DNA of 64,000 nucleotides from Petrosia ficiformis (Eukaryota > Porifera > Demospongiae > Haplosclerida > Petrosiidae), in contig OX345636.1 in NCBI GenBank assembly GCA_947044365.1, forward strand, positions 1,528,501-1,592,500, given 5' to 3'. The position numbers and the translations under genes were made by a program. Of this stretch, positions 16,851 to 38,856 are shown in pieces. Position 1 is the stretch's first letter. Every line of letters starts with the position of its first letter. The notes beneath the pieces were generated by a model, which ran no database searches, had not been told where the DNA came from, and was given only the letters and a program-made list of their open reading frames with translations.

Positions 16851-16909
16851 TACCCTCGCCGCGTAGCGTAGGCGGAAGGGTACGGTAATCGTTTTGTCTG
16901 TGTGTCTGT

Positions 16910-16951
<42 letters not shown>

Positions 16952-16955
16952 GCAA
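16851..16955. repeat. GC-rich hairpin end plus (TG)n tract
   Basis: attaccctcgcc at 16850 pairs with ggcggaagggtacggtaat at 16871-16889 around gcgtagcgta. A tgtctgtgtg/(TG)n run follows. A partly similar sequence (ttaccttgccacgtaggcga at 17708) lies 850 bp downstream, so the two may be ends of one non-autonomous element. The interior open frame (17164-17400) is not recognised. Confidence 0.4.
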
Positions 16956-18559
16956 TTTTTCTGGAAAAATAAAAACATTGACATTTCAAAAGAGGTACTG
17001 GTAGACTTCAAATTATACAAGGAAAAAAAATAACGTAGGAATTCTTCTTAAACCTTTCGGTTATAAAGTTATCACAATGTTTATAACTCACGATTACTGT
17101 TTCCAGACTTGAGAAGACTCGTGGAGGCATCTGGACACATCAAAACATAACTACTCCTGTATCATGACTATCGCTAGCAAAGCACTACATAAAAGCAAAC
17201 AAAATTTGGGTAGTGGTTGCTACAACATCGAGTACTGGCTCCAAGCATTCTCCATTACTTTCAAACTCCGCCTATTTCAATTTCAAGTCATGTGCTGTGC
17301 ACGTTACTCGAACGTCAGCAGTTTTGAGGACCTGTCTATGCTGTCTTTGTGGAATATTTCACAAGACGAATTGAGGATCTTTCTTTCTTCTTTCAGATAA
17401 TACAGAGACTAAAATGTAAGACTTATAGTATAGACAAGGAAGAGACTAGTATAATCATACTAAGTAATAAGTAGTGACATGTTAGTTTATATAATTTATA
17501 TATATATATATATTATATATATATATCTATATCTATTATAATATTATTATAAAAACTAACATGCCAGTACGGTTTTATAACTTAATATGTTTTATACACA
17601 AACTAAACAATCTGAAGTAAACATTCTCATTATTATATGACCATACAAACGAGCAATGATAATTATAATCTTTTGGCATATTATATTTCGAAATTATAGT
17701 TTGTATTACCTTGCCACGTAGGCGAGGGTCCCGTCCCGACGGTATTCATTACTAAATGTATTCTGCTATAATTATTTGTAAGAAGAATATCAAAATATTT
17801 TCAACAATCAACTTGGAATGAGTACCTTCCTGGTATGACTTCATGTGATGCCATGAAAGTACCTGTGTCAGGGAAGTACTTGTTCCAAGTCTATCAAATG
17901 TGCAAGTACAAAATAATTACTGTAACTCGACAAGCAAGAATTGTTGTTGACAGCTCCATGTTTAATTGATTATTCAACTAGTTAGAGTAGATCATCTGTG
18001 TATTGTATTGACCCCACAAAAAAGATTCATTATATGGGTTAATCTATCTACCAGGTCTAATTATAATAACTTAACATTTGCAACATACAGTAATGTGACC
18101 ATCTATGTGAAAACAAGCCAAAACATGCAAAAGTGACATATTAACTGTTTGCAGTAGAAGCCAAAACGTACAAAAATATGTCAGTCTTTACTTTTGGAGT
18201 TTTATATTTTTTGGATAAATATTATCTACGAAATCTTGACTAAGAATACAAGACGTTTCAACACTCATATGCAAGCAGTGTCTCCAAGATGAGTAATTAC
18301 ACATACAGGATTTGTATTCAGAGATAAGACAGTAATAATGCAAAAATATGAACGGATCCTATGTTCCACCCATTGCAATATTTATTGGACTGAAGCAAAA
18401 TAATTCTACAGGAGAAAACACTTTTTTTAAAAAGCTCACTAGCCAGAAAACACAAAGACGTATTGTGAAACATGTTGATAGATCATTTGTTGATGAAGCA
18501 ACAATGGTTTAATTGCATGTTTAATTACATTCATTAAAGTAAACAATGAAAATCATTAA

Positions 18560-19014
18560 TCCATGTCACATCATCTAATTAAAATAGACTTTTGTGGAGA
18601 TGAGCTTGAGATAGATGATGAAGACTCTGATTCAGATCTAAATGAAGAAGAAACAAGAGATATTGGAATTGAATGCCCATGGATAATATATACTTGAGAT
18701 GGAAACAGGTGACAAAAATGGCAATGAAGAAAGAATTGAATGTACAGTAATTAGCAAATGTATGTGATGTCATTGAGATGGAAGGATGTATAGAAACAGA
18801 TAAAGATGACGAGGTGAATGGACTAGTGAGTGATGAGGGATGTGAAGTATTAGTACAATGTGATTTAAATGAACTTCAAAGAATTGAAAACGAAACATTT
18901 AAGATGTTTTTGGAAAATGGGTGTGGATGTAGCTTAAATAAAGGCAAACCTTGCTTTAATCACTTTCTTGAGACACACTATCATGAGATGCATAATAATT
19001 TGGCCATTAATTAA
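18560..19014 (+). pseudogene. Cys-rich exon of an unnamed transposon protein
   Basis: An acidic stretch at 18596-18697 (D-E-D-S-D-S-D-L-N-E-E-E) is followed by an open frame from 18778 ending at 19014. It contains E-N-G-C-G-C-S-L-N-K-G-K-P-C-F and N-H-F-L-E-T-H-Y-H. The C-x-C-(x7)-P-C spacing recalls the N-terminal Cys cluster of transposon-associated proteins common in sponge and coral genomes, but I cannot name the family. The two parts are in different frames or exons and no downstream domain is present. Confidence 0.35.
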
Positions 19015-19859
19015 GTCACAAATCTTTATTTAGGTGTGTAGACAGATTTTCCTTTACTTGCATGGAATAGCAAAATAGATGTCGTGAAAGATGGGCTTAT
19101 ACCTCAGTGATTAAACACTTGTGTGGTGTTCATTACAAGATATACACATAAACTACCTCATAATGCCTTCATGGTAAACAATGTCCAGCATCTCAAATTC
19201 TTTATCGCCAGCTACACTAAGGAGAATCTCTCTACCAGGATGAATACCTACATGTAGGAATAATCCTCTTACAAACATCTGATAAATCCTATACATCATA
19301 AATAACAGGTTGCTACTGCTCCCACCTTCTGCTTCATATAATAGCACATTTTGTGAACATATAATACTTGTATACATATTGTAGGTACATGTCATTAAAT
19401 TTGATGAAATAGTTGACTGTTGAAAAGTGCTAATTAGGTAAGACCTAGAATCAACTATGAAAATGTATAGAAAGTTTTTTTTTAGTGTAAGTGAAGTACA
19501 CTTACATGCAGCCAAAATAAAAACCATTATGTAATTCAGGATTGTTTAATTTCATTAATAATAACAATAATAAGTACCATCATTTTCATATCTGAAGTGG
19601 AGAATTCAGAATGGCCTTCACCACTTTCATCTCATATTTATTTCTCTACCTGTGGGCCACACAATTTCCGCCTCATTGGTGCTTTAGCTGGCTTTAATAA
19701 AAGCCGTGTAGAGCTGAAGTGAATTGTTTCAAAAGCACTGTTGACAACGTAATTAAATCTGCAAATGTAAATTTTGCCCAAAATGTGGTAAATCAGATGG
19801 GAAAGTATTGTATCTACTTATAATACATAGGGTCTTTTCTCACCAACTTTAACAATATA

Positions 19860-19990
19860 ATATATAGAAAAAGTATCCTTATGATTGCTTTGTGGTGTCC
19901 AATGTTCAGTAATCATGGCTGACTTTATCATGCTTGAAACACAACAGTCTATTATAGTTGATTATCTACCTTTTCAAAGAAATATACAGT
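19860..19990 (-). repeat. interspersed repeat A, copy 2 (partial)
   Basis: Shares tgattgctttgtggtgt, ttcagtaatcatggctga, ctttatcatgcttgaaa and the acaacag/ttatagttgattatctac segment with copies 1 and 3. Only the end corresponding to 13080-13210 is present. Confidence 0.55.
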
Positions 19991-20754
19991 AAAGGACATA
20001 AAAAGTTGATGTTTTGTAATCGTTCTATTGATTCGAATTGTTTTACAATTAAGAATCGACGATTAAAACTGTTAAAGCAATCCTTGCAAAGACCATCCCC
20101 CATTTCGCCCTATCCCTTTCTTTGAAAGATACCACACACAATAGCCTACATAAGCTCCCATATCATATATAAGTGAATCTGTAGTTACTAAACTGTATAT
20201 TTGCTTTATTTCTTGGTTTAATGTTTAAAATTAACAAATACACAATGAATTACAACAATACTATGTATTTTTCGGGTCAACCGGAATACACAAAAACCTT
20301 ATTAAAAATCATAGACACACCCCTCGATCCTAGGGTCTCTTATCGAATGCCACCGCTACAAGGAACCGACAACTAAGGAACCGTTAATTTGCAGGCGTGG
20401 TGTTACAGTTACTTTACAGGGGCAGTAACAATTCTACTCCTACACAATTGGGACACTACCATATTCGTATACTCCCCTAGGATATCATTCAGTTTATATA
20501 CCATCTCCCAGAATCTACATAAAATCTGTTAGGAATCTATTAACATCACAGAAAATCTGTTTCAATAAAACTGCAGGTGTACTCAGCCTGTGAGGAATCT
20601 CATATGGAAGGAACTACATAGTTTTAATTAAGGAACTGTGTGCTGGCTCTCTAAACTAAGGGTAATGATTTTAACCAATATATATATATTATTATTATTA
20701 TATATTATATATTTACAATATAATTACAATATATATATATAGTATGCTAATATG

Positions 20755-20965
20755 TCCATTATACAAAATATAGGACCTGAGTTTGTGTTCAAGGATGTGA
20801 TATAGCCTGAGCCTGTGAGGGCTATATCACATCCGAGGACACAGAACGAGGGTTCTACATGTATATACAAAATATAGGACCTGAGTTTGTGTTCAAGGAT
20901 GTGATATAGCCCGAGCCTGCGAGGGCTATATTGCATCCGAGGACACAAAACAAGGGTCCTATATG
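20755..20965. repeat. two tandem ~115 bp hairpin units
   Basis: Each unit starts tacaaaatataggacctga and contains the perfect stem gatgtgatatagcc / ggctatatcacatc (second unit gatgtgatatagcc / ggctatattgcatc), ending cgagggttctacat. Such units are foldback-type repeats. Confidence 0.65.
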
Positions 20966-20989
20966 CAGTATATAGGATCTATTACCATA

Positions 20990-21098
20990 CTATATACAAT
21001 ATATTGTATGATGGTGACATCTCCTGCATGGTGTGCACATGGAAGGTCTACATACAATATATAGAACTCACCACACCAAAGGGATGATGTCACCATCA

Positions 21099-21155
<57 letters not shown>

Positions 21156-21170
21156 TATATATGTATATAT
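20990..21170. repeat. foldback (tatgatggtgacatc) and (TA)n
   Basis: tgtatgatggtgacatc at 21006 is inverted as gatgtcaccatcatac at 21087-21102, followed by about 60 bases of (TA)n. It lies just outside the giant transposon and may be a target-site neighbour or a separate MITE. Confidence 0.5.
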
Positions 21171-21329
21171 AATTATTATGTGTGTATGTAAATATAATAA
21201 TAATAATAATATATCTATGTTTATTTCAACGGGTAAACAATTCCAACAGAAGCAAGCATGGTTATTGACACAGATTAAAACCCTACTAATTATTCAACAA
21301 ACTCTAGGCCCTAAAACACTATACTGATT

Positions 21330-23400
21330 ATACCTATTTCCGGTGCCAATTCTTCAGGAACTTTCATGTCTTTACATGTTTCACTCCTTTCTTCCATCAG
21401 AAGTTAGAACAAATTAATGTATTAGTCATATCTACATGTATAGTATATTAGTCTGTTATGAGTGATCTTCATTCATTAGATACATGTACAGTATGTATAC
21501 CCATGCATATAATCTAAGGAAGTGGTTAAGGAACTGCTTTAAATGTGCCACTCCTTACTTCCCTTAGAAGTTAGAATATATTACTCTTATCTATAAGTAT
21601 AGTTTATATAGTCTGTTATGAATTACATGTATCTTCATTCAATAGATACATGTACAGTATGTGCATATAATCTAAGGAACTGGTTAAGGAACTGCCTACT
21701 GCTTCCCTTAACAAATTACTCTAGGCCCTAAAACACTATACTACAGATCACTGATTATACCTATTTCCGATGCAACTCTTAAGGAACTGCTTTACATGTT
21801 TCGCTCCTTTCTTCACTTAGAGGTTAGAACAGATTAATATATTGCTCATATCTACATGTACATGTATAGTATATTAGTCTGTTATGAATGATCTTCATTC
21901 AATAGATGCATGTACGTGTACACGTACAGTATGTATAATCTCTGCGTATAATCTATGGAACTGGTTAAGGAACTGCTTTAAATGAGCCACTCCTCTCTTC
22001 CCTTAGAAGTTAGAACAGATAGTCATATCTAGTATATTAGAGTTGTCTTCAATCAATAGATATAGGTATGTGTATGTATAACCTATGCATATAATCTAAG
22101 GAATTGGTTAAGGAACTGCTTTAAATGTGCCACTCCTTTCTTCCCTTAGAAGTTAGAATAGATTAATATATTACTCTTATCTATAAGTATAGTGTGTTAT
22201 GAATTACATGTATCTTCATTCAATAGATACATCCACATGTACAGTATGTATACCCTATGCATATAGTCTAAGGAACTGGTTAAGGAACTGGTTTAAATGT
22301 GCCACTCCTTTCTTCCCTTAGAAGTTAGAATGGGTTAATATATTACTCTTATCTATAAGTACAGTGTGTTATGAATTACATGTATCTTCATTCAATAGAT
22401 ACATCCACATGTACAGTATGTATACCCTATGCATATAATCTAAGGAACTGGTTAAGGAACTGCTTTAAATGTGCCACTCCTTTCTTCCCTTAGAAGTTAG
22501 AATAGGTTAATATATTACTCTTATCTATAAGTACAGTGTGTTATGAATTACATGTATCTTCATTCAATAGATACATCCACATGTACAGTATGTATACCCT
22601 ATGCATATAATCTAAGGAACTGGTTAAGGAACTGCTTTAAATGTGCCACTACTTTCTTCCCTTAGAAGTTAGTAATATATTATTCTTATTTATAGGTATA
22701 GTATATACAGTATGTTATGAATTACATGTATCTTCATTCAATAGATACATCCACATGTACAGTATGTATACCCTATGCATATAGTCTAAGGAACTGGTTT
22801 TAAGGAACTGCTTTAAATGTGCCACTCCTTTCTTCCCTTAGAAGTTAGAATAGATTAATATATTACTCTTATCTATAAGTATAGTGTGTTATGAATTACA
22901 TGTATCTTCATTCAATAGATACATCCACATGTACAGTATGTATACCCTATGCATATAGTCTAAGGAACTGGTTAAGGAACTGCTTTAAATGTGCCACTCC
23001 TTTCTTCCCTTAGAAGTTAGAATAGATTAATATATTATTCTTATCTATAGATATAGTATATATAGTCTGTTATGAATTACATGTATCTTCATTCAATAGA
23101 TACATCTACATGTTTGTATAACCTATGCATATAATATAAGGAACTTGTTGAGGAAATGTTCCACTCCTCTCTTCGTTAGAACAGATTAATATAATTCTCT
23201 TATCTACAAGTATAGTATATGTAATGTGTTATGAATTATCCTCATTCAGTAGATGCATGTACATGTATCTGATTATCCTATGCGTATAATCTAAGGAACT
23301 AGTTAAGGAACTGCTTTAAATGTGCCACTCCTTTCTTCCCTTAGAAGTTGGAATAGATTATTATATTAGTCATATCTACATATATAGTATATTCGTCTCT
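21330..23400 (+). repeat. left subterminal satellite array, ~174 bp unit
   Basis: A repeated unit contains ctaaggaactggttaaggaa, ctgctttaaatgtgccactc, ttcccttagaagttagaat, cttatctataagta, gtgttatgaattacatgta and tcattcaatagatacat. Near-identical units recur at about 22268, 22441, 22615, 22791 and 22965. More diverged, irregular units lie on both sides. The outer part contains actctaggccctaaaacact twice, also found once in the right array. Confidence 0.85.
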
Positions 23401-23439
23401 TAGGAATGTATGTGTTAGACATAGCAATACACTCCATTA

Positions 23440-24565
23440 TAAATTAATGTATTTAGGATGCAACTATATAATATACATACATGTTAAATCTTCTGGAGTG
23501 TACCATGTAAGTGTAGTTACAGTCTTAATTGTTTTTTTAAAGTGTTTATTTCGGCGTATGCAAACTTTCTAATGGTACATTACAATGCAGTAATTGTCTC
23601 AAGTTTAAAATATTTTAGTATATGTGTGAATGTGTGTGTCTGTCTGTCTGTTAAGTGAGTAGCTAAAAGATTCCTAGCAAAGTCTACTTACAATTCATTT
23701 CCAATCTTGAATTTATAGAAGAAGACTAGTTACATGTAGTTAAACACATGATAAAGGTTTAGAACCGAAATCACTGTTATAGTAGTCTAGCACACCTTAC
23801 TTAACTCGTCTGTCTGTTTGTTTGTCTGTCTGTTTTTTTTTGTCTATTTATGTCTATTTGCTATTACTTTGTGTCTGTATACACTTTTTGTGGTGTTTTA
23901 TTAAGCCACAACACTATGTACTGAAGACTCTTTGGTAATGATCATACTTTGACCTAATAATTATCTACTTCACTTCATTTTTTCATTCAATATAGGTGAG
24001 TACAACTGTGGGAAATCTACTTTGTAGAATTTTTTGTTAAAGAGAAAGAGTGGAGGAACCAGTTATAGAACTATTTAAAGGCACTGCCACTGCTTCTCTC
24101 CAACTAAACTAGTCATGAATTGTTTTTGCTTTGTATATTACTTAAAAACACATCTTACACTGTCTTTTCACTTTTTTATGAGGAAAATAATAATTTTATG
24201 GCAATTATTACTTCTTAATTTCCTGTGGTTGCATACTATTTATAATAAAGTTGATTGGTATAGTGTGTTTTAAGTCAACATGAGTAAGAGGAAGAATATC
24301 CTTCCCACTTGTGACCATCTTGAAACTAAACCAAAGGCTACTAAATGTGATGAAGATGATGTTGGTATGGTGAAGTATGCAGTATGCTCAATATCTTTTA
24401 GTATATACAATCATATTAGATTGCAGTGTCCAAACTGTTAGTATGGTAGAACCAAATAAATCTATAGCTGTTGGAAGAGATGTGGTGTGTTCCCTTATAT
24501 TTATTGTATGATTTTGGATTTATATTACACTTGATTTAGTTCCATACCATGCCAATGTACTCACA
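23440..24565 (+). repeat. left inverted arm of the giant transposon
   Basis: About 1.1 kb matches 34200-33028 in reverse. Shared landmarks are the tgtctgtctg tract, the ggtgtatt-type taataaagccacaaca segment, the first two coding exons and their intron. Homology fades just after 24560 (gccaatgtactcac / ccaatgtactcatag). Differences are mostly single-base changes and small indels. Confidence 0.85.
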
Positions 24566-27500
24566 GTTGTGCTAAACATATTTATTTATTATGTATTCAC
24601 AATAATGCAGATAAAAAGGATGAATGCTATTAATAGTAGATGTTATACTTCTATAGCACAAAAGGTGTAATTAAGTTGCAGTGCATTTACTTATGCTAAT
24701 ATTTTGACTTTCTTATGTATTGCAGTGTAATCATTGGCTTGGTTCTACATCACCTTGTGAGTCTAGTTTTTGTTTTCTATACTGGAAGAGTACTAGTAAG
24801 GGTGGTCAACATATAGTTTGGGTAGGTCAGGTATAATCTTGATAACTTATAACAATAATATAAATATCTTTTCTAATTATGTATTTAAGAGCAAACAACA
24901 TAATTATAAATTATATAATTACACTCCATGTAATAACTGATAGGTCCAGATCACATGCGTGACTTTGCTGAACATCAGCATGTTATAGAATTATTCAAAG
25001 AGTCAGCACTAAAACGTAATATTTTCACTGAAGAATGTAAGTCTCTAGTCATAAACTCATAATTGAATTCAAATTTTTAATTATAGCTTCCAAATCAGCT
25101 AAGAATGAGGAAATGGATCCTTTGATGAAAGAGCCCATGCTCTTAAAATTTAAAAATCCAACAAATTACACAAATGATATTTTGGCAAAAATTATTCCAC
25201 GAATTCTAAATCCATATGGTAACGTGTAGCTTAATGTTATAATATTACTTTTTTGCTGTTATTTAATTATTTGTTGTCAGGAAAAAGGAATTTCTATGTT
25301 TCTAAGAATTGCCCTGAGTGGTTCCCAAATGATATTACATTTAGACGTCCAAACCATCCAAAAGGTAATTATATTAGCTGAAACTTAATTTGGTTCCATG
25401 TTTTATTGCAGAAAACGAAAAGAGAATGACTGCAAATGAAATGCAGAAGATTTTGAAGGCATTTATGATTAAATGTCCTCATTCCTATAAAATGTATAAT
25501 GACTAATCTACTGCTACTATGCCATGTTACTATCAATATTCATTCATTATTGGTGAATATGACAGTGAACCTGAAATTGATACAGATTGTTCAGAAAACA
25601 AGTCACAAATAAAGGTAACTGTACTTTTGCACATACATGCAGTGTATTATTAATGCTTAATTTTGCAGGAAGTAACACCTGAAGATGCATTGAACTGGTG
25701 CCATAGTGTTGACCAATGGCAAGCCTTTACAGAAAGAGTTACTGAGTCAATGACGAAGGTAAATGTATCAAATCTCTCAACATCCACAGTAACCACCAGT
25801 GAATCTGTTAATGTTATTGATTGGAGGTATGTTTAATTTGCTCAATGTACAAATGATAATAATGTAAAAATACATAGACGAAAACGCTTACTACAAAACA
25901 AGCTACCTGAAGGCTTCTCACCAGCATTAACAACATCAACTGGGGATTGCTTGTTTGGTTCCGTCAGTTTGTGCCTATTTGCTCTTAAGGTTCTCTGCAG
26001 TTGTGCAAGGAGTTACTCATTTTGATCATTATATAGAGCTAGTCAGTTGACTTTGTTTGCTGTCATTACTGTGTTATAGCTTATTCATTAAAAATAGATT
26101 TTATCCAAGATAACATCAGTGTCAGATGCAATACAATTTCTATCAACTGTGGTTTCATCTGATACCACTTTGCATCATCTTCCAGAATCTATGGACGTCA
26201 ATGAAATTGCAAAATATGCATTAGTTAATGAAATAATGTCAACATCCAAGATTGGCTCATACTCAGGTGATAAAATAAAACTGCCTGTACTTGTGTAAAC
26301 TCACTTTGAATGTTTTATGCAAGTCTTCTCCAAATACTCTTCCTAGCTGGAGCAACTGGATATTCAATCCAGCAGCACTGTGAAGTATATAGAGACGGAT
26401 ATGACACAATTGTATATCCATGTCCATGTTCCACTAGTGCTCCCAAATCAAATATTCATATAATGTGGGTGATGTCCATTGACAAGATGTCTAGTAGTTG
26501 TTCGATGAATCACATCATACCACTACTTCCCAACACCACAGAGTATAGTAGTAAGTCAACCCATTATTGACTGCCTATAACATGAATAATATTTCACTGA
26601 AGGGGATAACATTCAGAGTGATCCAACTTATTTCATTAAGGACACTGTCTTATATGACAAGATTTGTAAATTTTGTGCTCCTGTGGGTAGGGAAAGGGAT
26701 GATATGGTCCAATGTGACCAGTGCTGTGCTTGGTACACTGCGCATGCATTGGTATATCAAGTATTCACTTCCAGGATACCAACATTCCTTTCTTTTGTTG
26801 TCAGCCTCCAAGTGATCATTTTAACTGCATGTGAGTTTTTGAACATGACATACTAAGTTATGTTCATTTAGAAATGTTAGTGGTCAATTTCTTTTGAGTA
26901 ATCAAGGCTCAGAGGAAAAAACGGACAATTCATTTGAGGGTTATACAGATGTTCAATCTGTGTATCCTGATAATGGAATTTGTGATTTAATTGTTGATTT
27001 CTATGTGAGGTGAACCTAGCAGATTTATGTGAAAATATACACTGTTATACATGTCTTGACAGTTAATAATTTTCATGTAGAATTGTGTCTCCTATAAGTA
27101 TATGCCACTATACTGCCGGAGCACTGGCATACACTGCTATAGCCAGCATAGGACCAGAAACATCTCAAAAAGAATTAAAGAAGAAGTTTAATATCACAAA
27201 TGGAGCCTTTGATGTAACACATCCAATTCTGCTTTTTCCCTGCCATCCACTGTATACAATATTCAACTAAAGATTACCTATCTTTATTAACATTAATTAT
27301 ATTAATTATGCAGGAATACCTGGCACTGGATTCTTGTTGCTGTTTATACAAAAGAAAATTTGTTAGTGCTTTCATCATGCATGAAATATTGTAGCAATAC
27401 CAGAGCTCACTCTATGCTTGTCCTTTATGTATGAATATTTCAGTGCTGTAGTTTTGGACTCAACATCACCAGATGCTGTACTTCCATACAGCATTGCAGT

Positions 27501-28552
27501 AGTTAATAGAATCAACTCTCTACTTCAATGTTGGCCATCATTAAGAGACTTGCAGTTAAAAGCAGTACCTTACCCTGTAAGTACACATCAGTATTTGTAT
27601 GTGCAACATTATTATACATGATTTTAATTACATAATTATAGGTTCCAATGCAAAAAGGAGGAACTGACTGTGGGATTCATGTAATCCACAATATAATAAC
27701 TATAGCAAATGTAAGCCAATGATTTTCAATTGATGGTTTTATAAATTATTATGTGCATGTATAGCATGATCCTTATGATCTTCTAAATGGTGAAATTGAT
27801 GCAAAAAAATTTGAAGTTAATCCAGCATCATTTCGCAAATCCATTTTGAAAGAATGTGAAATTAGATCCCACAAAGTTACCAGGTACATAAGTATTTGTA
27901 ATTTTCAAATTTTAATTAAATCCACAATGTTGATATTGCAATGTATGACAAATTAATCAATTCACTTTCTAGGTTGAAGAAATTTCAAGAAATGAAGGCA
28001 AGCTATAGATTATTTTATTATGCTTAATTTATTGATCTTTTTTAGTATGACTCAGATGTGAATAAAGTTTTGCGTAAATCAGAAGATGGTAGTAGACATC
28101 AAAGGTAAAGGTAGAGGTGTAGTGTCAACAAGAATATTCAAGAAAGATGACTTCCTTTGTGTGTATGCTGGAGAGTGTATATCATTCAAAGAAGCCAAGA
28201 GTAGAGAGAATGAGTATCTTAAATGTCCTGATGTTGGGTCCTATATGTATTACTTCACATTTGACAACAAGAAATTATGGTACTGATTATATAATAACTA
28301 TATACCTTAACATTTAATGGGTGTTATATTTGCTATAGTGTTGATGCCACTAAGGATGATGGCCGCCTAGGACGACTATTTAACCATTCAAAGAAACATG
28401 CCAATGTTTATACTAAGGTTGTTTCAGTTGATAACAACCCACACATTTGCTTGATGGCTGGAAGTGATATCAATGAAGGTGATGAACTAGTGTATGACTA
28501 TGGAGAACAAAGCAAGGAAGCAACAACTGTGTACCCCTGGCTAAAAGAATGA
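24280..28552 (+). pseudogene. OTU-like / PHD-like / Ulp1 / SET8-like fusion gene (22 exons, damaged)
   Basis: About 920 residues can be followed through 22 phase-matched exons. Residues 1-50 (MSKRKNILPTC...) come from the inverted arm. An OTU-like cysteine protease follows (~305-470) with nucleophile motif T-G-D-C-L-F at ~25938 and His motif N-H-I-I-P-L-L-P at ~26508. Next is a PHD-like finger (~485-537; ICKFC, VQCDQCCAWY, FFCC) lacking the usual W-Y-H. A Ulp1/C48 SUMO-type protease (~585-765) has W-H-W-I-L-V, V-L-D-S and M-Q-K-G-G-T-D-C-G, i.e. His, Asp, Gln and Cys all present. A SET8/KMT5A-like methyltransferase (~790-920) has G-K-G-R-G-V, Y-A-G-E, F-N-H-S and Y-D-Y-G, ending P-W-L-K-E-stop. 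Damage: TAA at 25504-25506 and a frameshift near 28086 just before SET. The likely role is an accessory chromatin/ubiquitin-like modifier for the transposon; this is inference. Confidence 0.75.
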
Positions 28553-29082
28553 AAACTGTACATCATTATGCTAAACATTTCCTTGTAATCACTGTATCAG
28601 TATTGATTGTTTAAAATATTATATTAATACAGTCATAGTTAATACTGATCAGAATCATGTGAGAAGAGAGTTCTGGGTATGAAGTATATTTACATATAAT
28701 GCTAAACCTTATGTAAACCCGAAACCTAAGTTTAAACCCAAGAGCCGAATGATCAAAAGTGGTTGTAACTTGAAAATGAAGCAACGAATGTTACAAGTTT
28801 TGACAAAAATGAACTCAGCACATTAAAATACATCATATAAGAAAGTGTGGCAATTGTCAGAGATTTACTTTCCAATTTCATGCTTTTCACCGATATTCAG
28901 TAACAAACCTTCTTCAGTCACTATGTATTTCAACTCATTTTTTCCACAATGTCATTCAAAACAATTTTCATGTGCTGGGTTTATTATATAATTAATTTTT
29001 TGAGATTATAAGTGTGGGTCAAAATTAGATTCTTTCAAATATTTACCAAGTGAATTTAGCAGATAATAACTAATTTGAATTA

Positions 29083-32000
29083 TTAAGAATTCGCTAGTTT
29101 TTTGCATCTATTTCTGTACTATAAATAAAGTTTGCAATGTCTCATAAAATTCTTTGCATTCATGTATGATAGAGATGACTTTATCCTTGAGAGAGTGGAA
29201 TTTGCTTGCTCTACAACTTGAGTATTTATGCATGAGAACTGTGGATAAGTTGCAAGATTATATCCACAACTGCAACCTGTATATTTATAGTAATTCAAGG
29301 ATTCAATATAAATATTTTATATACTTATTATATGTACCTATATGATTAGACCAATGGAAACGATCAACAAGAAACTGAGAATTTCTGAAAAAATCAGGTT
29401 CTCTATTTAAACATTAGTTGTGTGAGTTGCAACAGTTGTCATAAACAATTGTTTCAGGAGCTATGTATAATAGAGTAGAAAAAACCATTCTGTATAATTT
29501 ATATCCAATACAATAATTATAATGTTGCTAACCTTTTATACATCGTTCATATAGGAGAGTGAATGGTGTATCTGGTGACTCACGTACACGCATGGCTTGA
29601 AATCCATAGCATATACCTACAGAATAGTAGAGACGAATGTTAAGTTTGTGATAATTAAAGCCAATAATTTACCATGGTGACAGAAAAGAGTAAAAACTCC
29701 TGGAAGAAGAGATGGGTGACCAGCATTTTGTTTTGTACAGACAATGGTTCATTTACTACTATCTGCTTCATAGTTTCTTCTTCTGCGAATTAAAGGAAGA
29801 GTTGGGAAATAGCATAAGTTTTTGATTTCATCATCATATAGTACTCCAGATTCACTGAGATTGATGTCATCATCAGTAGATGGCACAACACTAAATGGCA
29901 CTTGGGACTTGATGATCATTTCCTTCAATAGCGGTGTAATAATTGAAGGATAATGACCCAAGACGAAGATTAAGTCAAATAGTACTGGGGTTGTCTCCTG
30001 GAGTTGTTTCATTCTCTGTAAATTAAAGAAGTTTGCATTCGTGTTTGCTATCTTTAATACAGCAATTTTAATAATAATAAACCATGATGAAGGTATTATG
30101 ATGTGTATTTTATGTGAGTGTGTCTAAAATTAGTATTCATAATGCAAATAAGTGTGAGTACTTAGCAATACCTCAGGGTTTGTTAATATATCTTCATCAC
30201 ATAATTGATTTATTAGTGCAATAGATTTTTCATTTGGAGGTATGAGGGCACCCACAGCAGAGGAGCTTTCCTATGGAATGGATGAAATTTCACCAATGTG
30301 ATGGACACTGGTGTAATTTTGAAGTCAACCGTTGAGGTGTGGAAAGAGATTCTAATTATTACCTTCCCTTTGGAATAATTACTTCATCAATTTCTTGATA
30401 TCTTGTAAAGATATTGCTCCAAAAGTCAAACTGCCTCCTAAATGAAAGAGCTGTGGCATCCATGACTACTAAACTAGGATAAGGACCACAATTGCTGCAT
30501 TGGAACCCACATGAATAGTCTATATCCAAAAGCTCCAAATAAGCATACCATGCAGAGCAAAAATGAATGTAATGTACAACATCTTTGAAATTGCTGTTTC
30601 CAGCATCTATGTATGACTGGTTAAGTACAGTATATTCAGTATATATAGTTGTCCTGCAACAGTAATATTTTATGTCATAACAAGTAACAAAGACTATTAT
30701 AATCTTACCTTTCCATTAAGAAATGAAACATAAATTGCCGCAGCACCTCATATGTAAACAATAGAGTCTTCATATTAAGTAAACACATTTTTGTCCATCA
30801 TAATGAAGGCATCCTTCACAATCCTCAGTGTTGCATTTCAAGTAAAAAACTGAAATAATAATAAATCGTGATGAATGTGTGGCCATATTTACATGCATTA
30901 AGTGTTAAACAAAGACCTTTAGTTTGAACAAAGCAGTTCATAGTAACTATGTGAGCACCGGTGAATAAGCAAAGATCTTCACTCCAATTTATCAGTCCAC
31001 ATCTATTGCACACTGCAGTAGTCTCAGGTATAAGCATTGATAAACCATCCACAATGTTGAATCTACTACTTGAAGGCATTAATAGAATGCTGGAGAGGGT
31101 AGTTGTTAGATCAAACAGAATTTTGTCTTTAGACATACACGATAAACTAGGTGCACTCTGCCTGGGAAGAATCTTATCTTCATTATGCTGGCAATATACT
31201 TGAAAAATTGGCAGTAAAGCTTTAGGAATGTCTTCATGATCTGTCACATTCGACAAAATTTGGAATAGACTAATTATATGTTTACATGATGTTTTGCTGT
31301 ATCTGCATGTTGCACAAGTAATGATTGTGCTTCCAGAAATGTATACAACCCCAAAGGTGTCTTCTACTTTCAGGCAAATAGCACCACAATTACCAACTTG
31401 TACGATTGAATCAGTAACCTGGATTACAAAGTGCAACTTAGTAAAAATCATTCTCGGATAATTATACAGTATAGCTTACATGCATAACTGAATCAATATT
31501 CATTGATGCATAGCTGTGATCTATATTATGGAGAGTACAATTTTGTCATATCACAGTACAATTATTAGCATAATAATACTTTACCTTCAAATTCCAAATC
31601 AGGCGTGATACAATGCACAGCGTCGACTTCCATCAGTATGTGAGTAACAGCAATGATATGAATGCAATGTGGAAAATCCTCAGAAAACTTGGCATAGTCA
31701 CAATTGATCTTTGCACTGAGACTATTTAACAATCGTGAGTTATCAGAGTTACATGTGCAAGTATATAACCAATGCTTCCTATCTTCAAATTGTCTTCCAG
31801 AACGTGTTACAAATACATAAGAGTAGGGCTAAATGAAGTAGTTAGTGAAAAGAATAATGACTTAATTGAGCCATTAGGTTGCTAGAGTCCAAATTTTAAC
31901 TTTTAACTTACTGATTAATACTATATTATAATAATTATTGTCTTTAGCATGCACTATACTAACTTTTAGTGATAAAGTTGTGTGTGAGAACTCCTGTACA

Positions 32001-33317
32001 ACAAATTCCTTAAATGAATGATCACATGGGACTATTTCGTGATTGGTTATCAGCAAATGTATATACATGTCCATATCAGACAGTGATGAAACAATACCAT
32101 TTTCACTATTGCTAGTTGAGACCTGCTAATGTAAAATAGTTATAAGATAATACATTTCATTCCATGAACTAATGTGTGTACTGTGTAGCATAATATATCT
32201 TTACTTTGCTACTTTCTATAGATGGTTGATCATCTGGTGAGCCAAGCAAATTTTCCAGGTGGCAGTCTGTGGTCATAGAAATATCACACATTACATGCAT
32301 TCTATAATTTCTGTTCTGAAATGAAATAATATTATGATGCTAGCTCTATATTGGTTTGTAATGAATGTAGGATTAATGTATAGTATGCCATGCTGTATAA
32401 ATTCTATGCACGAATTGTATGTATATCTAATTAATAATTATATATATTACCACTTATGATCATCTTGCATACACTTTAAAGACTTGCTGCTTTCATCTAT
32501 AAAATTGATGATTTGCCAATAAAAGTGCATACATAGTCTAGCTGATTAAATTTAAAAATGGGTTGTGCTATCAAAAACTGTTTACTTTTTACTACAGGAG
32601 TAGTTGCAGATAATCGAAGCTTATTTCTTTTCAAGATACCATCAGCAGCAAAATTAAACCTGTGATTTCAAACATATATAGACCTATAATATTAATGTTA
32701 TTATGAAAAAAATTAATGATATATTATATTAAATACAATGTGAAAAAATTAATTTGCATAGTATCACAAGCCTGTCATCTGAGCCTTTTCGACAATCCTT
32801 TCTAAGAGCATCTCTAGTCAATATTTCACCTTTTCTCATCTAATGACATAATTATTGCAAATATCTACTACTTTCCACATTACATAAACTAATTACCATT
32901 CTAGCAGAAGAAATATGAACAGGTTTCTTGAAGATGAAAGTAGAAGTAGAAATTTTTTTATTGTCTGGTTTGCACTAAGAGTAAAAGTTTAGATTAACAT
33001 CCTATGCAATAATAATTGTATAACTATGAGTACATTGGATTTCTGCATGCATGGAACTAATTCAAGTTTAATGTAAATCCAAAACCATACAATAATGAAT
33101 ATAAGGGAACACACCACATCTCTTCCAACAGCTACAGATTTATTTGGTTCTACCACACTAACAGTTTGGACACTGCAATCTAATATGATTGTATATATAA
33201 TCATTATAAAAGATATTGAGCATACACCATACCAACATCATCTTCATCACATTTAGTAACCTTTGGTTTAGTTTCAAGATGGTCACAAGTGGGAAGGATA
33301 TTCTTCCTCTTACTCAT
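29083..33317 (-). pseudogene. KDZ-superfamily DDE transposase (multi-exon, damaged)
   Basis: About 17 exons, mostly phase-consistent. The N terminus (33317-33115) is the arm-encoded MSKRKNILPTC segment. K-K-P-V-H-I-S-S-A-R-M and M-R-K-G-E-I-L-T-R-D-A-L exons follow. A Cys/His cluster at 31585-31828 reads Y-T-C-T-C-N ... I-N-C-D-Y ... H-C-I-H-I. A SWIM-like finger C-A-T-C-R-Y-S-K-T-S-C-K-H lies near 31300. The RNase-H core has D1 in C-S-N-C-G-P-Y-P-S-L-V-V-M-D-A-T (~30480), the linker H-H-G-I-C-Y-G-F, D2 in T-I-V-Y-D-N-C-C (~29440), and E in N-T-Q-V-V-E-Q-A-N-S (~29210), all typical of KDZ enzymes that cut and insert the element. Lesions: a frameshift near 30775, one phase mismatch near 30270/30363, TGA at 29749, TAA at 29414 and TAG at ~29119 (likely ancestral Trp). 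Confidence 0.8.
32557..32662 (+). pseudogene. possible THAP-finger first exon, antisense in a transposase intron
   Basis: 35 codons open with M-G-C-A-I-K-N-C and continue to S-L-F-L-F-K-I-P-S before a stop. The C-x4-C start and F-x-F-K-x-P spacing resemble the N-terminal half of a THAP zinc finger. The second half (W, C-x2-H) was not found downstream. The antisense frame here does not fit the phases of the neighbouring transposase exons, whereas joining those exons directly does, so this lies in an intron. It could be chance. Confidence 0.25.
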
Positions 33318-34200
33318 GTTGACTTAAAACACACTATACCAATCAACTTTATTATAATAGTATGCAACCACAGGAAATTAAGAAGTAATAATTGCCATAA
33401 AATTACTATTTTCCTCATAAAAAAGTGAAAAAGTCAAAAGACAGTGTAAGATGTGTTTTTAAGTAATATACAAAGCAAAACAATTCATGACTAGTTTAGT
33501 TGGAGAGAAGCAGTGGCAGTTCCTTTAAATAGTTCCATAACTGGTTCCTCTACTCTTTCTCTTTAACTCTATAAAGTAGATTTCCCACAGTTGTACTCAC
33601 CTATATTGAATGAAATGAAGTGAAATAGATAATTATTAGGTCAAAGTATGATCATCACCAAAGAGTCTTCAGTACATAATGTTGTGGCTTAATAAAACGC
33701 CACAAAAAGTGTATACAGACACAAAGTAATAGCAAATAGACATAAATATACAAAAAAAAACAGACAGACAAACAAACAGACAGACGAGTTAAGTAAGGTG
33801 ATTTAAACTGCTAGACTACTATAACAGTGATTTCGGTTCTAAACGTTTATCATGTGTTTAACTACATGTAACTAGTCTTCTTCTATAAATCCAAGATTGG
33901 AAATGAATTGTAAGTAGACTTTGCTAGGAATCTTTTAGCTACTCACTTAACAGACAGACAGACACACACATTCACACATATACTAAAATATTTTAAACTT
34001 GAGACAATTACTGCATTGTAATGTACCATTAGAAAGTTTGCATACGCCGAAGTAAACACTTAAAAAAAAAAACACTTAAGACTGTAACTACACCTACATG
34101 GTACACTTCAGAAAGATTTAACATGTATGTATATTATATAGTTGCATCCTAAATACATTAATTTATAATGGAGTGTATTGCTATGTCTATAACACATACA
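33028..34200 (-). repeat. right inverted arm of the giant transposon
   Basis: Reverse-complement partner of 23440-24565, containing the transposase promoter region and its first two exons. Both arms keep the ATG, the intron and the reading frame. Confidence 0.85.
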
Positions 34201-34229
34201 TTCCTAAGAGACGAATATACTATACATGT

Positions 34230-35625
34230 AGATATGACTAATATATTAATCTATTCTAACTTCTAAGGGAAGAGAGGAGTGGCACATTTAAAGCAGTTCC
34301 TTAACTACTTCCTTAGATTGTATGCATAGGATAATCAGATACATGTACATGCATCTACTGAATAACACATTATATATACTATACTTGTAGATAAGAGAAT
34401 TATATTAATCTGTTCTAACGAAGAGAGGAGTGAAACATTTCCTCAACAAGTTCCTTATATTATATGCATAGGTTATACAAACATGTACATGTATCTATTG
34501 AATGAAGACAACTCATAACAGACTAATATATACATGTAGATATGACTAATATATTAATTTGTTCTAACTTCTAAGTGAAGAAAGTAGTGAAACATGTAAA
34601 GCAGTTCCTTAAGAATTGCACTGGAAATATGCATAATCAGTGATCTGTAGTACAGTGTTTTAGGGCCTAGAGTAATTTGTTCTAAGGGAAGAGAGCAGTA
34701 GGCAGTTCTTTAACCAGTTCCTTAGATTATATGCATAGGGTATACATACAGTACATGTACATGTAGATGTATCTATTGAATGAAGATACATGTAATTCAT
34801 AACACACTATACTTATAGATAAGAGTAATATATTAATCTATTCTAACTTCTAAGAGAAGAAAGCAGTGGCACATTTAAAGCAGTTCCTTAACCAGTTCCT
34901 TAGATTATATGCATAGGGTATACATACTGTACATGTAGATGAATGAAGATACATGTAATTTATAACAGACTATATATACTATACTTTTAGATAAGAGTAA
35001 TATATTAATTTGTTCTAACTTCTAAGGGAAGAAAGGAGTGGCACATTTAAAGCAGTTCCTTAACCAGTTCCTTAGATTATATGCATAGGGTATACATACT
35101 GTACATGTAGATGTATCTATTGAATGAAGATACATGTAATTCATAACACACTATACTTATAGATAAGAGTAATATATTAATCTATTCCAACTTCTAAGGG
35201 AAGAAAGGAGTGGCACATTTAAAACAGTTCCTTAGATTATACACATAGGATAATCGGATACATGTACATGCATGTACTGAATGAGGATCATTCATAACAC
35301 ATTATATATACTATACATGTACTTGTAGATAAGAGAATTTCCTCAACAAGTTCCTTAGATTATATGCATAGTGTATACATACTGTACATGTAGATGTATC
35401 TATTGAATGAAGATACATGTAATTCATAACAGACTATATATACTATACCTATAGATAAGAGTAATATATTAATTTGTTCTAACTTCTAAGGGAAGAAAGG
35501 AGTGGCACATTTAAAGCAGTTCCTTAACCAGTTCCTTAGATTATATGCATAGGGTATACATACTGTACATGTAGATGTATCTATTGAATGAAGATACATG
35601 TAATTCATAACACACTATACTTATA
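34230..35625 (-). repeat. right subterminal satellite array
   Basis: The same ~174 bp unit as the left array but inverted (gtggcacatttaaagcagtt, ccttaaccagttccttagat, tatgcatagggtatacat). About eight partly rearranged units. The array stops within a unit at about 35625, where a tandem-duplicated flank begins. Confidence 0.8.
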
Positions 35626-36116
35626 TGATGTCACATGCAATAATAATTCTTATTCATTCATTTATTTGACGTTCCTCTATCTATCTATCTATCTATCTAT
35701 CTCTCTATCTAGCTGTCTATCTATCAGTCTTGCTTAAGGATAATCGAAGGTTTATAGAGCCTTCAGTCTTTCTTGGTGCCAATTTAGAACAAGGGAACAA
35801 GGGTAAGTATCAGCTGTTTGCATGTGTACTTTGTTATAATTTACATGTATTATTATACTGCTTAACTGTGTGCATATAGTTCCTATTAAAGCCCAGCCAT
35901 CCCCACTTAACCATGGACGGACAACTTGGTATTCATATATACATAACTGTGTGAACTGTGTGCATTCCCGTTGTGTTTGCATATAGTTCCTATTAAAGCC
36001 CAGCCATTGCCACTTAACCTTGTGTCCTGTTATATGTGTAATTTGTAATAATCATCTGGATGTGATTGATGTCACATGCAATAATAATTCTTATTCATTC
36101 ATTTATTTGACGTTCC

Positions 36117-36147
<31 letters not shown>

Positions 36148-36266
36148 CTCTATCTAGCTGTCTATCTATCAGTCTTGCTTAAGGATAATCGAAGGTTTAT
36201 AGAGCCTTCAGTCTTTCTTGGTGCCAATTTAGAACAAGGGTAAGGATCAGCTGTTTGCATGTGTAA
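35626..36266 (+). repeat. ~200 bp direct duplication with (CTAT)n core
   Basis: 35626-35829 and 36067-36266 are nearly identical (gatgtcacatgcaataataa, ttcatttatttgacgttcct, (ctat)n, aaggataatcgaaggtttat, cagctgtttgcatgtgta). Between them a 45 bp piece (catatagttcctattaaagc) is also present twice. The second copy runs straight into the DUF6589 open frame. Confidence 0.75.
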
Positions 36267-37158
36267 CGTCAGAATGCATCCGGGAAAGGACTTCAATGCT
36301 AGTGAAGATTTTTTAACTGTAGTTGTGAAGTCCATGATCATTACTGCAGCTTGTAATGTTCTTGGAATGTCAAGTACTTCTGATAATCCCCAAGAAAGCG
36401 TAGTTCCATACTCAACTTGGCTTGAAGCAACTGATGCTGAAAGGAAAGCATTACTGATTTCAGTGTCAAAAAAGATAGTTAGCGATTCTGTATTTTTCTG
36501 CTTTACAACACCTTGTTTAAGATCTCAAGATAAAGTAATGGAATATTCAAAATTCTTATTGGGATTAGGATGTTTCTACATGGAATTTAGTGATGGCATA
36601 CGACAAGGTGATGGCACACGTGTGTTAAGATGTTGGCGATATATGCTTCCAATATTTCATAGCTCCCAACGTACTAATTATCGAAATGAGGCCATCCTGC
36701 TGCTCTATCAGCATGACTTCTTGCTTTCTCCAGCAGATGCAGAAACATTGATATGGAATAGATTTATTAATGTGCATGGGAAACCTGGGTGCAACATCCC
36801 ACAAGATTTGCATATGGAGCATTTAAATAGGATTGTTAAAGAAGCAGTGAAGGGATTAGGTTCTAACAAGACAGCTGAGGCTATATGCAGAGTTGCTAGA
36901 GCACTAGGAACAATTGCTCCAGTGTTAGACAATTTTTATACAGTTAACAATACAGCTCATCAACATAGTAGTCATTCTGTTGTATCAGCAGAAAGAGATA
37001 TACAAGTTGTAGTGAAAGATCTTTTAAAGTACAATATCTTTGAGTGTGTTGAACCTCGATCACATACCACATACTCAAACCCTAAAGATGTTCTTAGCTG
37101 CATGAATCTTCATGATTGGATCAAATCAAAAATACCCAAACTTCATCATACACATTAA
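36259..37158 (+). CDS. DUF6589-type protein, 5'-truncated
   Basis: A 299-codon intronless frame. The conserved block Y-M-L-P-I-F ... R-T-N-Y-R-N-E-A-I-L-L-L-Y is followed by L-S-P-A-D-A-E-T-L-I-W-N-R-F-I-N, then G-C-N-I-P-Q-D-L-H-M-E-H-L-N-R and K-E-A-V-K-G-L-G. This is the signature region of DUF6589, a domain of unknown role in proteins multiplied in sponge and cnidarian genomes, probably transposon-borne. Residues 1-25 are fused to the duplicated flank, so the ATG at 36259 is likely not the original start; the family normally has several hundred more N-terminal residues. It ends 77 bp from the convergent RecQ gene, which suggests the two were one unit. The frame is intact. Function is unknown. 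Confidence 0.65.
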   Translation: MCNVRMHPGKDFNASEDFLTVVVKSMIITAACNVLGMSSTSDNPQESVVPYSTWLEATDAERKALLISVSKKIVSDSVFFCFTTPCLRSQDKVMEYSKFLLGLGCFYMEFSDGIRQGDGTRVLRCWRYMLPIFHSSQRTNYRNEAILLLYQHDFLLSPADAETLIWNRFINVHGKPGCNIPQDLHMEHLNRIVKEAVKGLGSNKTAEAICRVARALGTIAPVLDNFYTVNNTAHQHSSHSVVSAERDIQVVVKDLLKYNIFECVEPRSHTTYSNPKDVLSCMNLHDWIKSKIPKLHHTH

Positions 37159-37234
37159 AAATACTTTGTTATATATTATGTTTAATGAAATGATTATCCT
37201 CAAACAATTATATATACTATTAATATAACAATAA

Positions 37235-38856
37235 TTAAACAAAAACAAACCTACTTTGATTAATGGAACATTTTTGACATACACATCTACTCATACAAAT
37301 GTCACAGCACAGGCACAATCTCTGTAGAATGATGTGTTCAAAACCAGCAAATCCTTCGAATAATACTTTACGACGACATACACTTGTATTTTCCATGTAC
37401 TGCAGCATTGCATTATCTACATATCGTTTGCACCCTTTCGTTTTCAGTAAAACTGCACAAGTAGGTTGCTCATCCCTCCCTCCTCTCCCAGTTTCTTGTA
37501 TGTATGATTCTGCATCATCAGAAGGTCCTACATGGATTATCTGCCGTACATCATCACAGTTTATCCCCATACCAAATGCAATTGTTGCACATACAATACG
37601 AAGAGGAGAGTTCTCAGTAAATGACTTAATAATCTGTTCTTTCACAGATTCATCAGTTGCACTGGTGAACATTTCCACAAGTCTGAACTTTGACAAGTCT
37701 GGTGCACCTGGTGGTTCTGTGAATTCCTTTCCCATATGGCTTCTGAAATGCAGGTAAATATCAGCACATTCTTCATACCGCCTACAGTATATAATTGTAC
37801 GTGGGAAATTTACTCGGTTTCTCCAAAACAGGGGCAAAGGTTACATCAATAGATACAAAAGACGCCACGCATAACATTAAATTCTGTTTACAGGGTGACA
37901 GAATTACTCTCACTGGATCTTTCATTGACAAAAGGCGTTCCACTGACATTCTCACATCACAACTGACAGTTGCAGTTAAAGCCATTACTCTGACTCCTTC
38001 ACGTAAAATACTACGAACCTCCCCGACACGTAACAAACTCTCTCGAAAGGTATCTCCCTTGTTAATATGAGAATATAATTTAAAACAATTACTATATTAC
38101 AACTGTTGTAACTATAATATACTGCATACCATTTTTTCACACAGTGAGCCTCATCGATAACAAATGCACATAGTCTCTTTTGGTATGTATCTCCACCAAG
38201 AAGATGCCGCCAATGTCTACTGAGTAGTAGTTCTGGTGTAAAATACACAAGCTGAAAATATCCTTCAGTGACTTTAGATTTGATCTCTTTATCATCCATA
38301 TCACCACATATGCATACACATCTTAAGCCTCTCAATCGCCATCCTTCAACCTGAAGATCATAAATATTTCTGATTATGAAACTTTACTATAATTTATAAT
38401 TATATAATAATTGTTTATAATATAATAATATATAATTATCATATATAATTATATCTAACTGTTATAATTATGTGATGAAAAGATACTTGTTTTACATTGT
38501 ATCTTGTAGTAGTCTCATAGTGTTTTTGTATTATGTAACCTATTATTTAGTCTTGTCATTGTTCTGTAACAATATTATCTATTACTATTATATCAGATCA
38601 TTAATTAGCATACCTGATCTTTCATTATAGCTGTGAGAGGAGTGATCACAACAACAACAGAATCTTTCCTACCCAGCAAACTATCAAAGGCAAATGGCAA
38701 ACAAGCGTAGCATAGTGATTTGCCAAATCCTGTAGGAAGGATTGCAAATACATCTCTTCCCTTCAAAAAACTCGTCACTACTTCCAACTGTTTTGCTCTC
38801 AATTTCTTATATCCCAATCGTTCTACTGCTGTTCTCACTGCCAACTCGTACTCCAT
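37235..38856 (-). pseudogene. RecQ-type DNA helicase of mobile type, frameshifted
   Basis: Three to four exons run from ATG at 38856. Exon 1 (38856-38614) has A-I-L-P-T-G-F-G-K-S-L-C-Y (motif I) and V-I-T-P-L-T-A-I-M-K-D-Q (Ia). Exon 2 (~38350-38130) has Y-F-T-P-E-L-L and V-I-D-E-A-H-C-V (motif II, DEAH). Exon 3 (~38062 on) has M-A-L-T-A-T-V (III), T-I-I-Y-C-R-R-Y-E-E (IV), A-F-G-M-G-I-N (V) and Q-E-T-G-R-G-G-R-D (VI), then a short Cys cluster C-D-I-C ... C-V-C-Q-K-C as in the RecQ zinc-binding region. There is no HRDC domain. About 440 residues, shorter than cellular RecQ. A one-base frameshift near 37830 breaks exon 3 between motifs III and IV. Relics of the same gene occur at 13330 and 48064, so it belongs to a dispersed family. 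Confidence 0.75.

What the first reader, a model, noticed from the sequence alone, without database searches (positions are those of the whole stretch)
21300..35625. Giant two-gene KDZ transposon with epigenetic cargo
One ~14.3 kb unit is bounded by multi-kilobase inverted arms. It carries a KDZ-type DDE transposase convergent with a gene fusing OTU-like, PHD-like, Ulp1 and SET8-like domains. KDZ elements with proteases or zinc modules are known as a class; a separate SET8-type methyltransferase gene inside the same arms is not an arrangement I recognise. It suggests an element that edits ubiquitin/SUMO marks and H4K20-type methylation around its own chromatin.
Basis: partly seen in the sequence, partly recalled or inferred. 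Interest (0 to 1): 0.92.

Follow-up and report, generated by a model that had tools for sequence, protein, structure and literature searches.

The report
Sponge transposon carrying histone-methylating fusion gene
A large jumping DNA element in a sponge genome carries, beside its own transposase, a gene that looks like a histone-marking enzyme fused to protease-like domains that may remove ubiquitin and SUMO, and many older relatives in the same genome keep the same pair, so the element may shape the chromatin it lives in.

Summary
The element runs from about 20,345 (not 21,300) to 35,625; its right arm is truncated against a subtelomeric satellite. Of 13 loci with these arms, 8 hold both genes in the same order. 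Gene 2 is a KDZ transposase (PF18758 above cut-off; DDE triad). Gene 1 is ONE phase-consistent 24-exon gene: OTU-like, PHD-like, Ulp1 and a KMT5A/SET8-class SET domain, not a separate SET8 gene. Both genes start in the arms with the same two exons. The pair is old: 13 of 17 diverged SET8-like loci have KDZ within 4 kb, 13 of 13 convergent. Cargo dN/dS (SET not covered) is 0.26-0.32 against one diverged locus. Against: no copy of 8 is intact in either gene, no target-site duplication was shown, OTU and PHD miss Pfam cut-offs, several copies spread by segmental duplication, the transposase shows no significant constraint, and function is untested. SET, OTU, Ulp1 and PHD are each known in other transposons. 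A KMT5A-class fusion beside KDZ was not found in the searches named. New variant of a known kind.

The parts
20345..24579 (.). Left inverted arm (about 4.2 kb) with terminal motif CRCTACAAGGAACC; holds exons 1-2 of gene 1 and (inferred) its promoter
   Evidence: homology borders and shared terminal motif in loci B,C,E,F,G,H,L,M; inner border
22072..23378 (.). 172-bp tandem repeats in left arm, 7.7 copies
   Evidence: TRF
24280..28552 (+). Gene 1 (cargo), 24 exons, one phase-consistent reading of about 915 aa apart from two frame breaks (20-bp loss in exon 11, 8-bp loss in exon 23)
   Evidence: splice sites AG/GT shared by most copies, one GC donor
24280..24484 (+). Gene 1 exons 1-2 (MSKRKNILPTCDHL.../VQTVSMVEPNKS...), same as gene 2 exons 1-2
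25878..26550 (+). OTU-like region (Cys motif GDCLFGS, His motif NHIIPLL), exons 11-13; broken in the window copy
   Evidence: no Pfam match; 3 of 3 PDB hits are OTU proteins, E 0.15-1.3 (sister-copy reading); motif reading recalled
26603..26830 (+). PHD-like Cys/His finger, exons 14-15
   Evidence: PF00628 E 0.013, below cut-off
26872..27710 (+). Ulp1 (C48) protease domain, exons 16-20, with HW / LDS / GGTDCG motifs
   Evidence: PF02902 26.5 bits, cut-off 20.7; yeast Ulp1 E 0.003
28046..28552 (+). SET domain of KMT5A/SET8 class, exons 23-24, to the C-terminus ...YDYGEQSKEATTVYPWLKE
   Evidence: PF00856 1.2e-18; KMT5A/SETD8 fill the 14 best PDB rows, E 9e-42 to 1e-36 (sister-copy reading)
29083..33317 (-). 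Gene 2, KDZ transposase, 16 exons in the model (the stretch 32316-32532 may hold a further exon), convergent with gene 1
   Evidence: PF18758 29.9 bits, cut-off 26.6; 28 homologues, best E 1e-102
33115..33317 (-). Gene 2 exons 1-2, the same leader as gene 1
30917..31828 (-). Cys/His-rich (SWIM-like / CxC-like) region of the transposase
   Evidence: motif reading (recalled); no Pfam match to this stretch, and PF18717 below cut-off in the next one; PF18717 listed for 12 of 28 homologues
29083..30653 (-). DDE core: VVMDAT, IVYDNCC, VVEQANS
   Evidence: alignment with six homologues
33022..35625 (.). Right inverted arm, truncated on its outer side
34702..35234 (.). 172-bp tandem repeats in right arm, 3.1 copies
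   Evidence: TRF
35626..36265 (.). About 1.5 units of a 440-bp satellite that forms arrays on C6, C8, C15, C16 (C8 and C15 arrays within 15 kb of the contig end); truncates the element
   Evidence: repeat D10
18500..20344 (.). Host flank shared with copies B,C,E,F,G,L in the same orientation (segmental duplication), not part of the element

Best explanation
A decayed copy of a large cut-and-paste DNA transposon of the KDZ class in a sponge; assembly size and chromosome lengths match Petrosia ficiformis odPetFici3.1. SHOWN by sequence: long inverted arms; two convergent multi-exon genes; both gene models begin with the same two exons, one set in each arm, so both proteins would share a 51-aa leader; gene 2 is a KDZ transposase with the DDE residues; gene 1 is one fusion gene ending in a KMT5A-class SET domain after OTU-like, PHD-like and Ulp1 domains; a SET8-KDZ pair recurs at 13 diverged loci. 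INFERRED: both genes are transcribed inward from promoters in the arms; the transposase acts on the arms; the cargo protein goes to chromatin at the element (leader, PHD-like finger), monomethylates H4K20 and strips ubiquitin and SUMO, from silencing or repair factors or from itself. The likeliest benefit is a chromatin state that keeps the element expressible, or that steers repair of the excision break. Probability: identity and architecture about 0.93; cargo kept by selection for the element's sake about 0.65 (lowered from 0.7, since the constraint test does not cover SET); H4K20-type methylation as the activity about 0.5; the anti-silencing or repair role about 0.35.
For: Eight loci with both genes in order. 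KDZ domain and triad. One reading frame through OTU-PHD-Ulp1-SET with matching intron phases. SET of copies B/E: KMT5A/SETD8 9e-42 to 1e-36, then one SET protein (4ldg) 1e-26, then KMT2A 5e-13. Shared leader exons in both arms. 13 of 17 diverged SET8-like loci beside KDZ, 13 of 13 convergent; random placement mean 0.04, at most 2 in 20,000 trials. OTU-like matches at five diverged KDZ loci, four of them upstream of SET8. N-region, PHD-like, Ulp1 and SET in the same order at locus K. Cargo exons w25087-27009 (N-region to start of Ulp1) of locus I versus B, D, E, H: dN/dS 0.32, 0.26, 0.28, 0.31; Fisher p 8e-5 to 6e-6 (the four share locus I and are not independent).
Against: No intact gene 1 or gene 2 among 8 copies. 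No target-site duplication. Copies at the ends of C1 share flanks, so much of their spread is segmental duplication. OTU and PHD below cut-offs. KDZ exons against locus N: dN/dS 0.42, 1.02, 1.22, 1.19 (B, D, E, H), none significant (p 0.053, 0.59, 0.72, 0.71). No constraint test covers SET or most of Ulp1. No relatives of the OTU-Ulp1 part or of the SET part in proteins of similar length in the protein collection, by searches of limited sensitivity. One PHD/Ulp1-part match (C1:18.857 Mb) and 4 of 17 SET8-like loci lie without KDZ. No RNA, protein or chromatin data.
Confidence: 0.6

Rival explanations
1. Passive passenger: a KDZ element once captured a host KMT5A-like gene fusion and carries it without benefit.
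For: All 8 copies are broken in the cargo; DNA transposons often capture genes (general knowledge); a SET8-like gene with both exons open and no KDZ lies at C14:4.298 Mb, 60% identical, possibly the host gene.
Against: The pair persists at 13 diverged loci with SET identity 38-56%, always convergent; cargo dN/dS 0.26-0.32 against locus I.
Confidence: 0.2
2. Not a live transposon family here: a dead block multiplied by subtelomeric segmental duplication.
For: Seven loci (A,B,C,E,F,G,L) share the left flank at 92-99%; E and F share 1.6 kb of right flank, D and G 155 bp, A and C the satellite; A,C,D,E,G share one nonsense codon in transposase exon 13 and one in exon 15; no TSD.
Against: H (C12) shows no long flank shared with the others in the stretches fetched; M, J, K and N lie elsewhere; arms are terminal inverted repeats with a shared end motif; diverged pairs are dispersed over five contigs. 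True for much of the recent spread, not for the origin.
Confidence: 0.3
3. The cargo mainly steers DNA repair at excision sites (H4K20 methylation and repair-pathway choice) rather than counteracting silencing.
For: KMT5A and H4K20 methylation act in double-strand-break repair (recalled); Ginger authors propose that OTU and Ulp1 may act in repair during or after transposition (PMC2836005, passages).
Against: No data on repair footprints here.
Confidence: 0.3

Closest known systems
Zisupton/KDZ DNA transposons (fish, nematodes, fungi)
   Same: KDZ transposase domain, multi-exon transposase, inverted ends (PMC9297572 passages; PMC12730594)
   Different: Here a second convergent gene with SET8 and proteases, very long arms with 172-bp repeats and shared first exons
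Fungal KDZ elements with TET/JBP dioxygenase (Kojima 2025)
   Same: KDZ elements that encode an epigenetic enzyme besides the transposase; proposed anti-silencing role
   Different: DNA-modifying dioxygenase in fungi versus histone-methyltransferase fusion in an animal
Oomycete SET-carrying elements (proto-Helentron-Pi; HarbingerS and MuDR)
   Same: SET gene inside a transposon; Helentron SET compared with Clr4 (PMC4067079, passages; PMC12730594)
   Different: Other transposase classes; Clr4-like rather than KMT5A-like; in the passages seen the SET is its own open frame, not fused to OTU-PHD-Ulp1
Ginger1 and Mutator transposons with OTU, Ulp1 or PHD domains
   Same: Same accessory domains (PMC2836005, passages)
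   Different: In Ginger1 they are C-terminal parts of the transposase, and no SET domain is mentioned in the passages seen
Maize MuDR (recalled)
   Same: Two convergent genes driven from the inverted ends
   Different: Different transposase; arms there do not carry shared coding exons, as far as recalled

Membership tests
KDZ (Kyakuja-Dileera-Zisupton) transposon | KDZ transposase domain PF18758 | tested here: met
   29.9 bits, cut-off 26.6, when the C-terminal 375 aa are scanned; no hit with the whole 905 aa
KDZ (Kyakuja-Dileera-Zisupton) transposon | DDE triad | tested here: met
   D65, D278 invariant in 7 rows; E in query and 5 of 6 homologues; which residues are catalytic is recalled
KDZ (Kyakuja-Dileera-Zisupton) transposon | terminal inverted repeats | tested here: met
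KDZ (Kyakuja-Dileera-Zisupton) transposon | 8-bp target-site duplication | tested here: inconclusive
   no copy found with two original ends and matching flanks
KMT5A/SET8 methyltransferase | SET domain closest to KMT5A | tested here: met
   14 best PDB rows are KMT5A/SETD8
KMT5A/SET8 methyltransferase | SET signature NHSK and YDYG | tested here: met
   both in the last exon of 7 of 8 copies (F lacks NHSK; D lacks four residues between them), though the exon before is frame-broken in A,C,D,F,G; role of residues recalled
KMT5A/SET8 methyltransferase | monomethylation of H4K20 | not testable with these tools
   needs enzyme assay
Ulp1 (C48) protease | Peptidase_C48 domain with His-Asp-Cys | tested here: met
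   PF02902 above cut-off; HW, LDS, DCG in window copy
OTU deubiquitinase | OTU domain | tested here: inconclusive
   no Pfam match; 3 weak PDB hits, all OTU
PHD finger | PHD domain PF00628 | tested here: inconclusive
   E 0.013, 15.9 bits, cut-off 24

The most novel reading that the evidence does not exclude
A long-lived lineage of animal KDZ transposons carries its own chromatin-editing enzyme, an OTU-PHD-Ulp1-SET8 fusion. The leader encoded in the arms is shared with the transposase, so both proteins are co-expressed and sent to the same place. The enzyme writes H4K20 methylation at the element while its own protease domains shield it from ubiquitin- and SUMO-dependent removal.
Probability: 0.3. 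Interest if true: 0.87.

Novelty: new variant of a known kind. Interest (0 to 1): 0.72.

Why it matters
Transposons with their own TET/JBP dioxygenases are known in fungi, and SET genes in oomycete elements. A KMT5A-class writer kept beside a KDZ transposase at many diverged loci of one sponge would extend the idea to histone marks in an early-branching animal, and would give a natural system to ask whether mobile elements write their own chromatin. The shared leader exons in both arms would be an unusual way to co-regulate two transposon genes.

Tried and rejected
Chance adjacency of two loci: rejected. Separate SET8 gene: rejected by intron phases and by the open reading into SET in copies B, E, H. 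My first reading that all eight copies share the transposase stop in exon 13 was wrong: A, C, D, E, G have it; B, F, H and N have an Arg codon there. My first model read a stop in gene 1 exon 8 of all copies; an intron with matching phase removes it. The dN/dS (with Fisher tests) wrongly counted that intron and some short chance matches; one search repeats it without them: cargo 0.26-0.32 (was 0.29-0.33), KDZ 0.42-1.22 (was 0.52-0.90, one of three p 0.04). TSD search: none convincing. Telomere repeat in window: 0 matches. Protein search with the OTU-Ulp1 part: 0 hits of 6,580 candidates; with the SET part: 0 of 49 candidates at E 1e-12, which is insensitive. Structure prediction was not tried, since the domains lie across many short exons.

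That KDZ plus SET8 is not in print rests on searches of an open-access library; five of these showed only part of their papers (25 of 70, 15 of 28, 20 of 460, 15 of 1,445, 10 of 12). Of the 4 papers holding 'zisupton' and 'set domain' and the 5 holding 'zisupton' and 'histone methyltransferase' I read parts of one (PMC12730594). The founding KDZ (2014) and Zisupton (2012) papers were not read (recalled).
Full report
What is there. The window is C1:1,528,501-1,592,500 of a 191.2 Mb genome. Assembly span and the lengths of chromosomes 1, 2, 3, 8 and 12 match Petrosia ficiformis odPetFici3.1 (PMC12648040, passages with part of Table 3; the paper counts 35 scaffolds, the held genome 29 contigs); the species name is an inference from that match. 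Inverted arms enclose two convergent genes. The left arm starts near 20,345, where nine other ends in eight loci show the same terminal motif, and reaches 24,579. The right arm runs from 33,022 to 35,625, where a satellite begins that elsewhere forms arrays, two of them within 15 kb of a contig end. Both arms hold 172-bp tandem repeats.

Copies. Probes from the arm, gene 1 and gene 2 coincide at eight loci: A (window), B, C, D, E, F, G on C1 and H on C12. Seven of the eight keep both arms; C has lost the right one. Five more arm-bearing loci do not hold both genes: J none, K a diverged cargo plus the last KDZ exon, L gene 1 exons 1-4, M part of a diverged KDZ, N KDZ only; locus I (C1:24.24 Mb) has gene parts without a found arm. 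Core identity among A-H is 93.8-99.1%. Seven loci (A, B, C, E, F, G, L) share the left host flank at 92-99%, E and F share 1.6 kb of right flank and D and G 155 bp. So recent spread near the ends of C1 was largely segmental duplication. H, J, K, M and N lie elsewhere.

Gene 1. The reading is open from the start codon to exon 10 and through exons 12-22 in the window copy; exon 11 (20-bp loss) and exon 23 (8-bp loss) are broken there, but exon 11 is open in B, C, D, E, H and exon 23 in B, E, H. Domains: OTU-like, PHD-like, Ulp1, SET. In the PDB the SET domain of copies B/E matches KMT5A/SETD8 at 9e-42, then one SET protein (4ldg) at 1e-26 and KMT2A at 5e-13. SET8 is therefore the C-terminus of one fusion protein.

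Gene 2. Sixteen exons on the minus strand, with one unresolved stretch. KDZ domain above its cut-off in the C-terminal part. Homologues, 28 at E<=0.001 of 6,202 candidates, the named ones from molluscs, an echinoderm, a cnidarian, lancelets and hemichordates, conserve the DDE residues (six aligned).

Shared leader. Exons 1 and 2 of both genes are the same sequence, one set in each arm, with phases that fit both third exons. No RNA supports this yet.

Lesions. No copy of eight is intact in either gene. A, C, D, E, G share two nonsense codons in the transposase.

The arrangement is old. Searching the genome with SET8 (74 matches) and KDZ (113 matches) and leaving out the eight copies and, for SET, all matches of 27-32% identity, I listed 17 SET8-like and 22 KDZ loci, N among the latter. 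Thirteen of 17 SET8-like loci have KDZ within 63-3,946 bp, all 13 convergent; random placement gave mean 0.04, maximum 2. Four have none: C14:4.298 Mb and three on C2. Nine KDZ loci have no SET8 match. OTU-like matches lie at C3:4.926, C1:12.97, C6:4.993, C1:16.515 and C1:33.202 Mb, the first four upstream of SET8 and all beside KDZ; one match to the PHD/Ulp1 part, C1:18.857 Mb, has no KDZ. Locus K keeps N-region, PHD-like, Ulp1 and SET in order. Cargo exons (w25087-27009) of locus I against copies B, D, E and H give dN/dS 0.26-0.32 at dS about 0.1; this does not cover SET. KDZ exons of locus N against the same copies give 0.42-1.22, none significant. Within the young copies dN/dS was 0.34-1.05 for gene 1 exon sets where it could be computed and 0.34-3.06 for gene 2, with few changes.

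Function. The domains point to methylation of H4K20 or a similar lysine and to removal of ubiquitin and SUMO. Whether this fights silencing, steers repair or protects the enzyme itself is inference.

Known relatives. Kojima 2025 (PMC12730594: outline, sections 4 and 26, passages) reports TET/JBP genes in fungal KDZ and other transposons, and cites SET genes in HarbingerS and MuDR of Phytophthora. PMC4067079 (passages) reports SET and OTU in Helentrons. PMC2836005 (passages) reports OTU or Ulp1 (and PHD) in Ginger1, and Ulp1 in Mutator, OTU in Helitron elements. The combination here was not found in the searches listed.

Noticed in passing
window 35626-36265: Interstitial units of a 440-bp satellite that otherwise forms arrays on C6, C8, C15 and C16; abuts the truncated arms of copies A and C.
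   Followed up: partly
G000 near ends of C4, C5, C6, C7, C10, C11, C14 and others: A second SET-domain family (about 30% identical, 162-aa open frame) sits near many contig ends, in places spaced by 8,218 bp, as if a subtelomeric tandem unit encodes a SET protein.
   Followed up: no
window 36244-37840: Another repeated element: DUF6589 (PF20231) on + and a Helicase_C (RecQ-like) frame on -; w36264-37200 recurs at 97-99% in six other places on C1.
   Followed up: partly
window 7750-10140: Long strand-asymmetric TG-rich tandem region (GC skew about 0.6) with a 319-aa probably spurious open frame on the minus strand.
   Followed up: no
window 46011-47027: Reverse transcriptase fragment (RVT_1).
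   Followed up: no
window 16844-17760: Repeat also found at 93-99% in the fetched D and H loci and, over 69 bases, in M; looks like a MITE with inverted ends.
   Followed up: no
G000:C2:2868001-2886000 (locus K, L031+L032): Recombinant: genes of a diverged element (SET 32%) with an inner arm 87-88% like the window family.
   Followed up: partly
G000:C14:4298301-4299400 (L041): SET8-like gene with both exons open and no KDZ match on C14; may be the host KMT5A or a freed relative; its intron lies at the same place as in the element's SET.
   Followed up: partly
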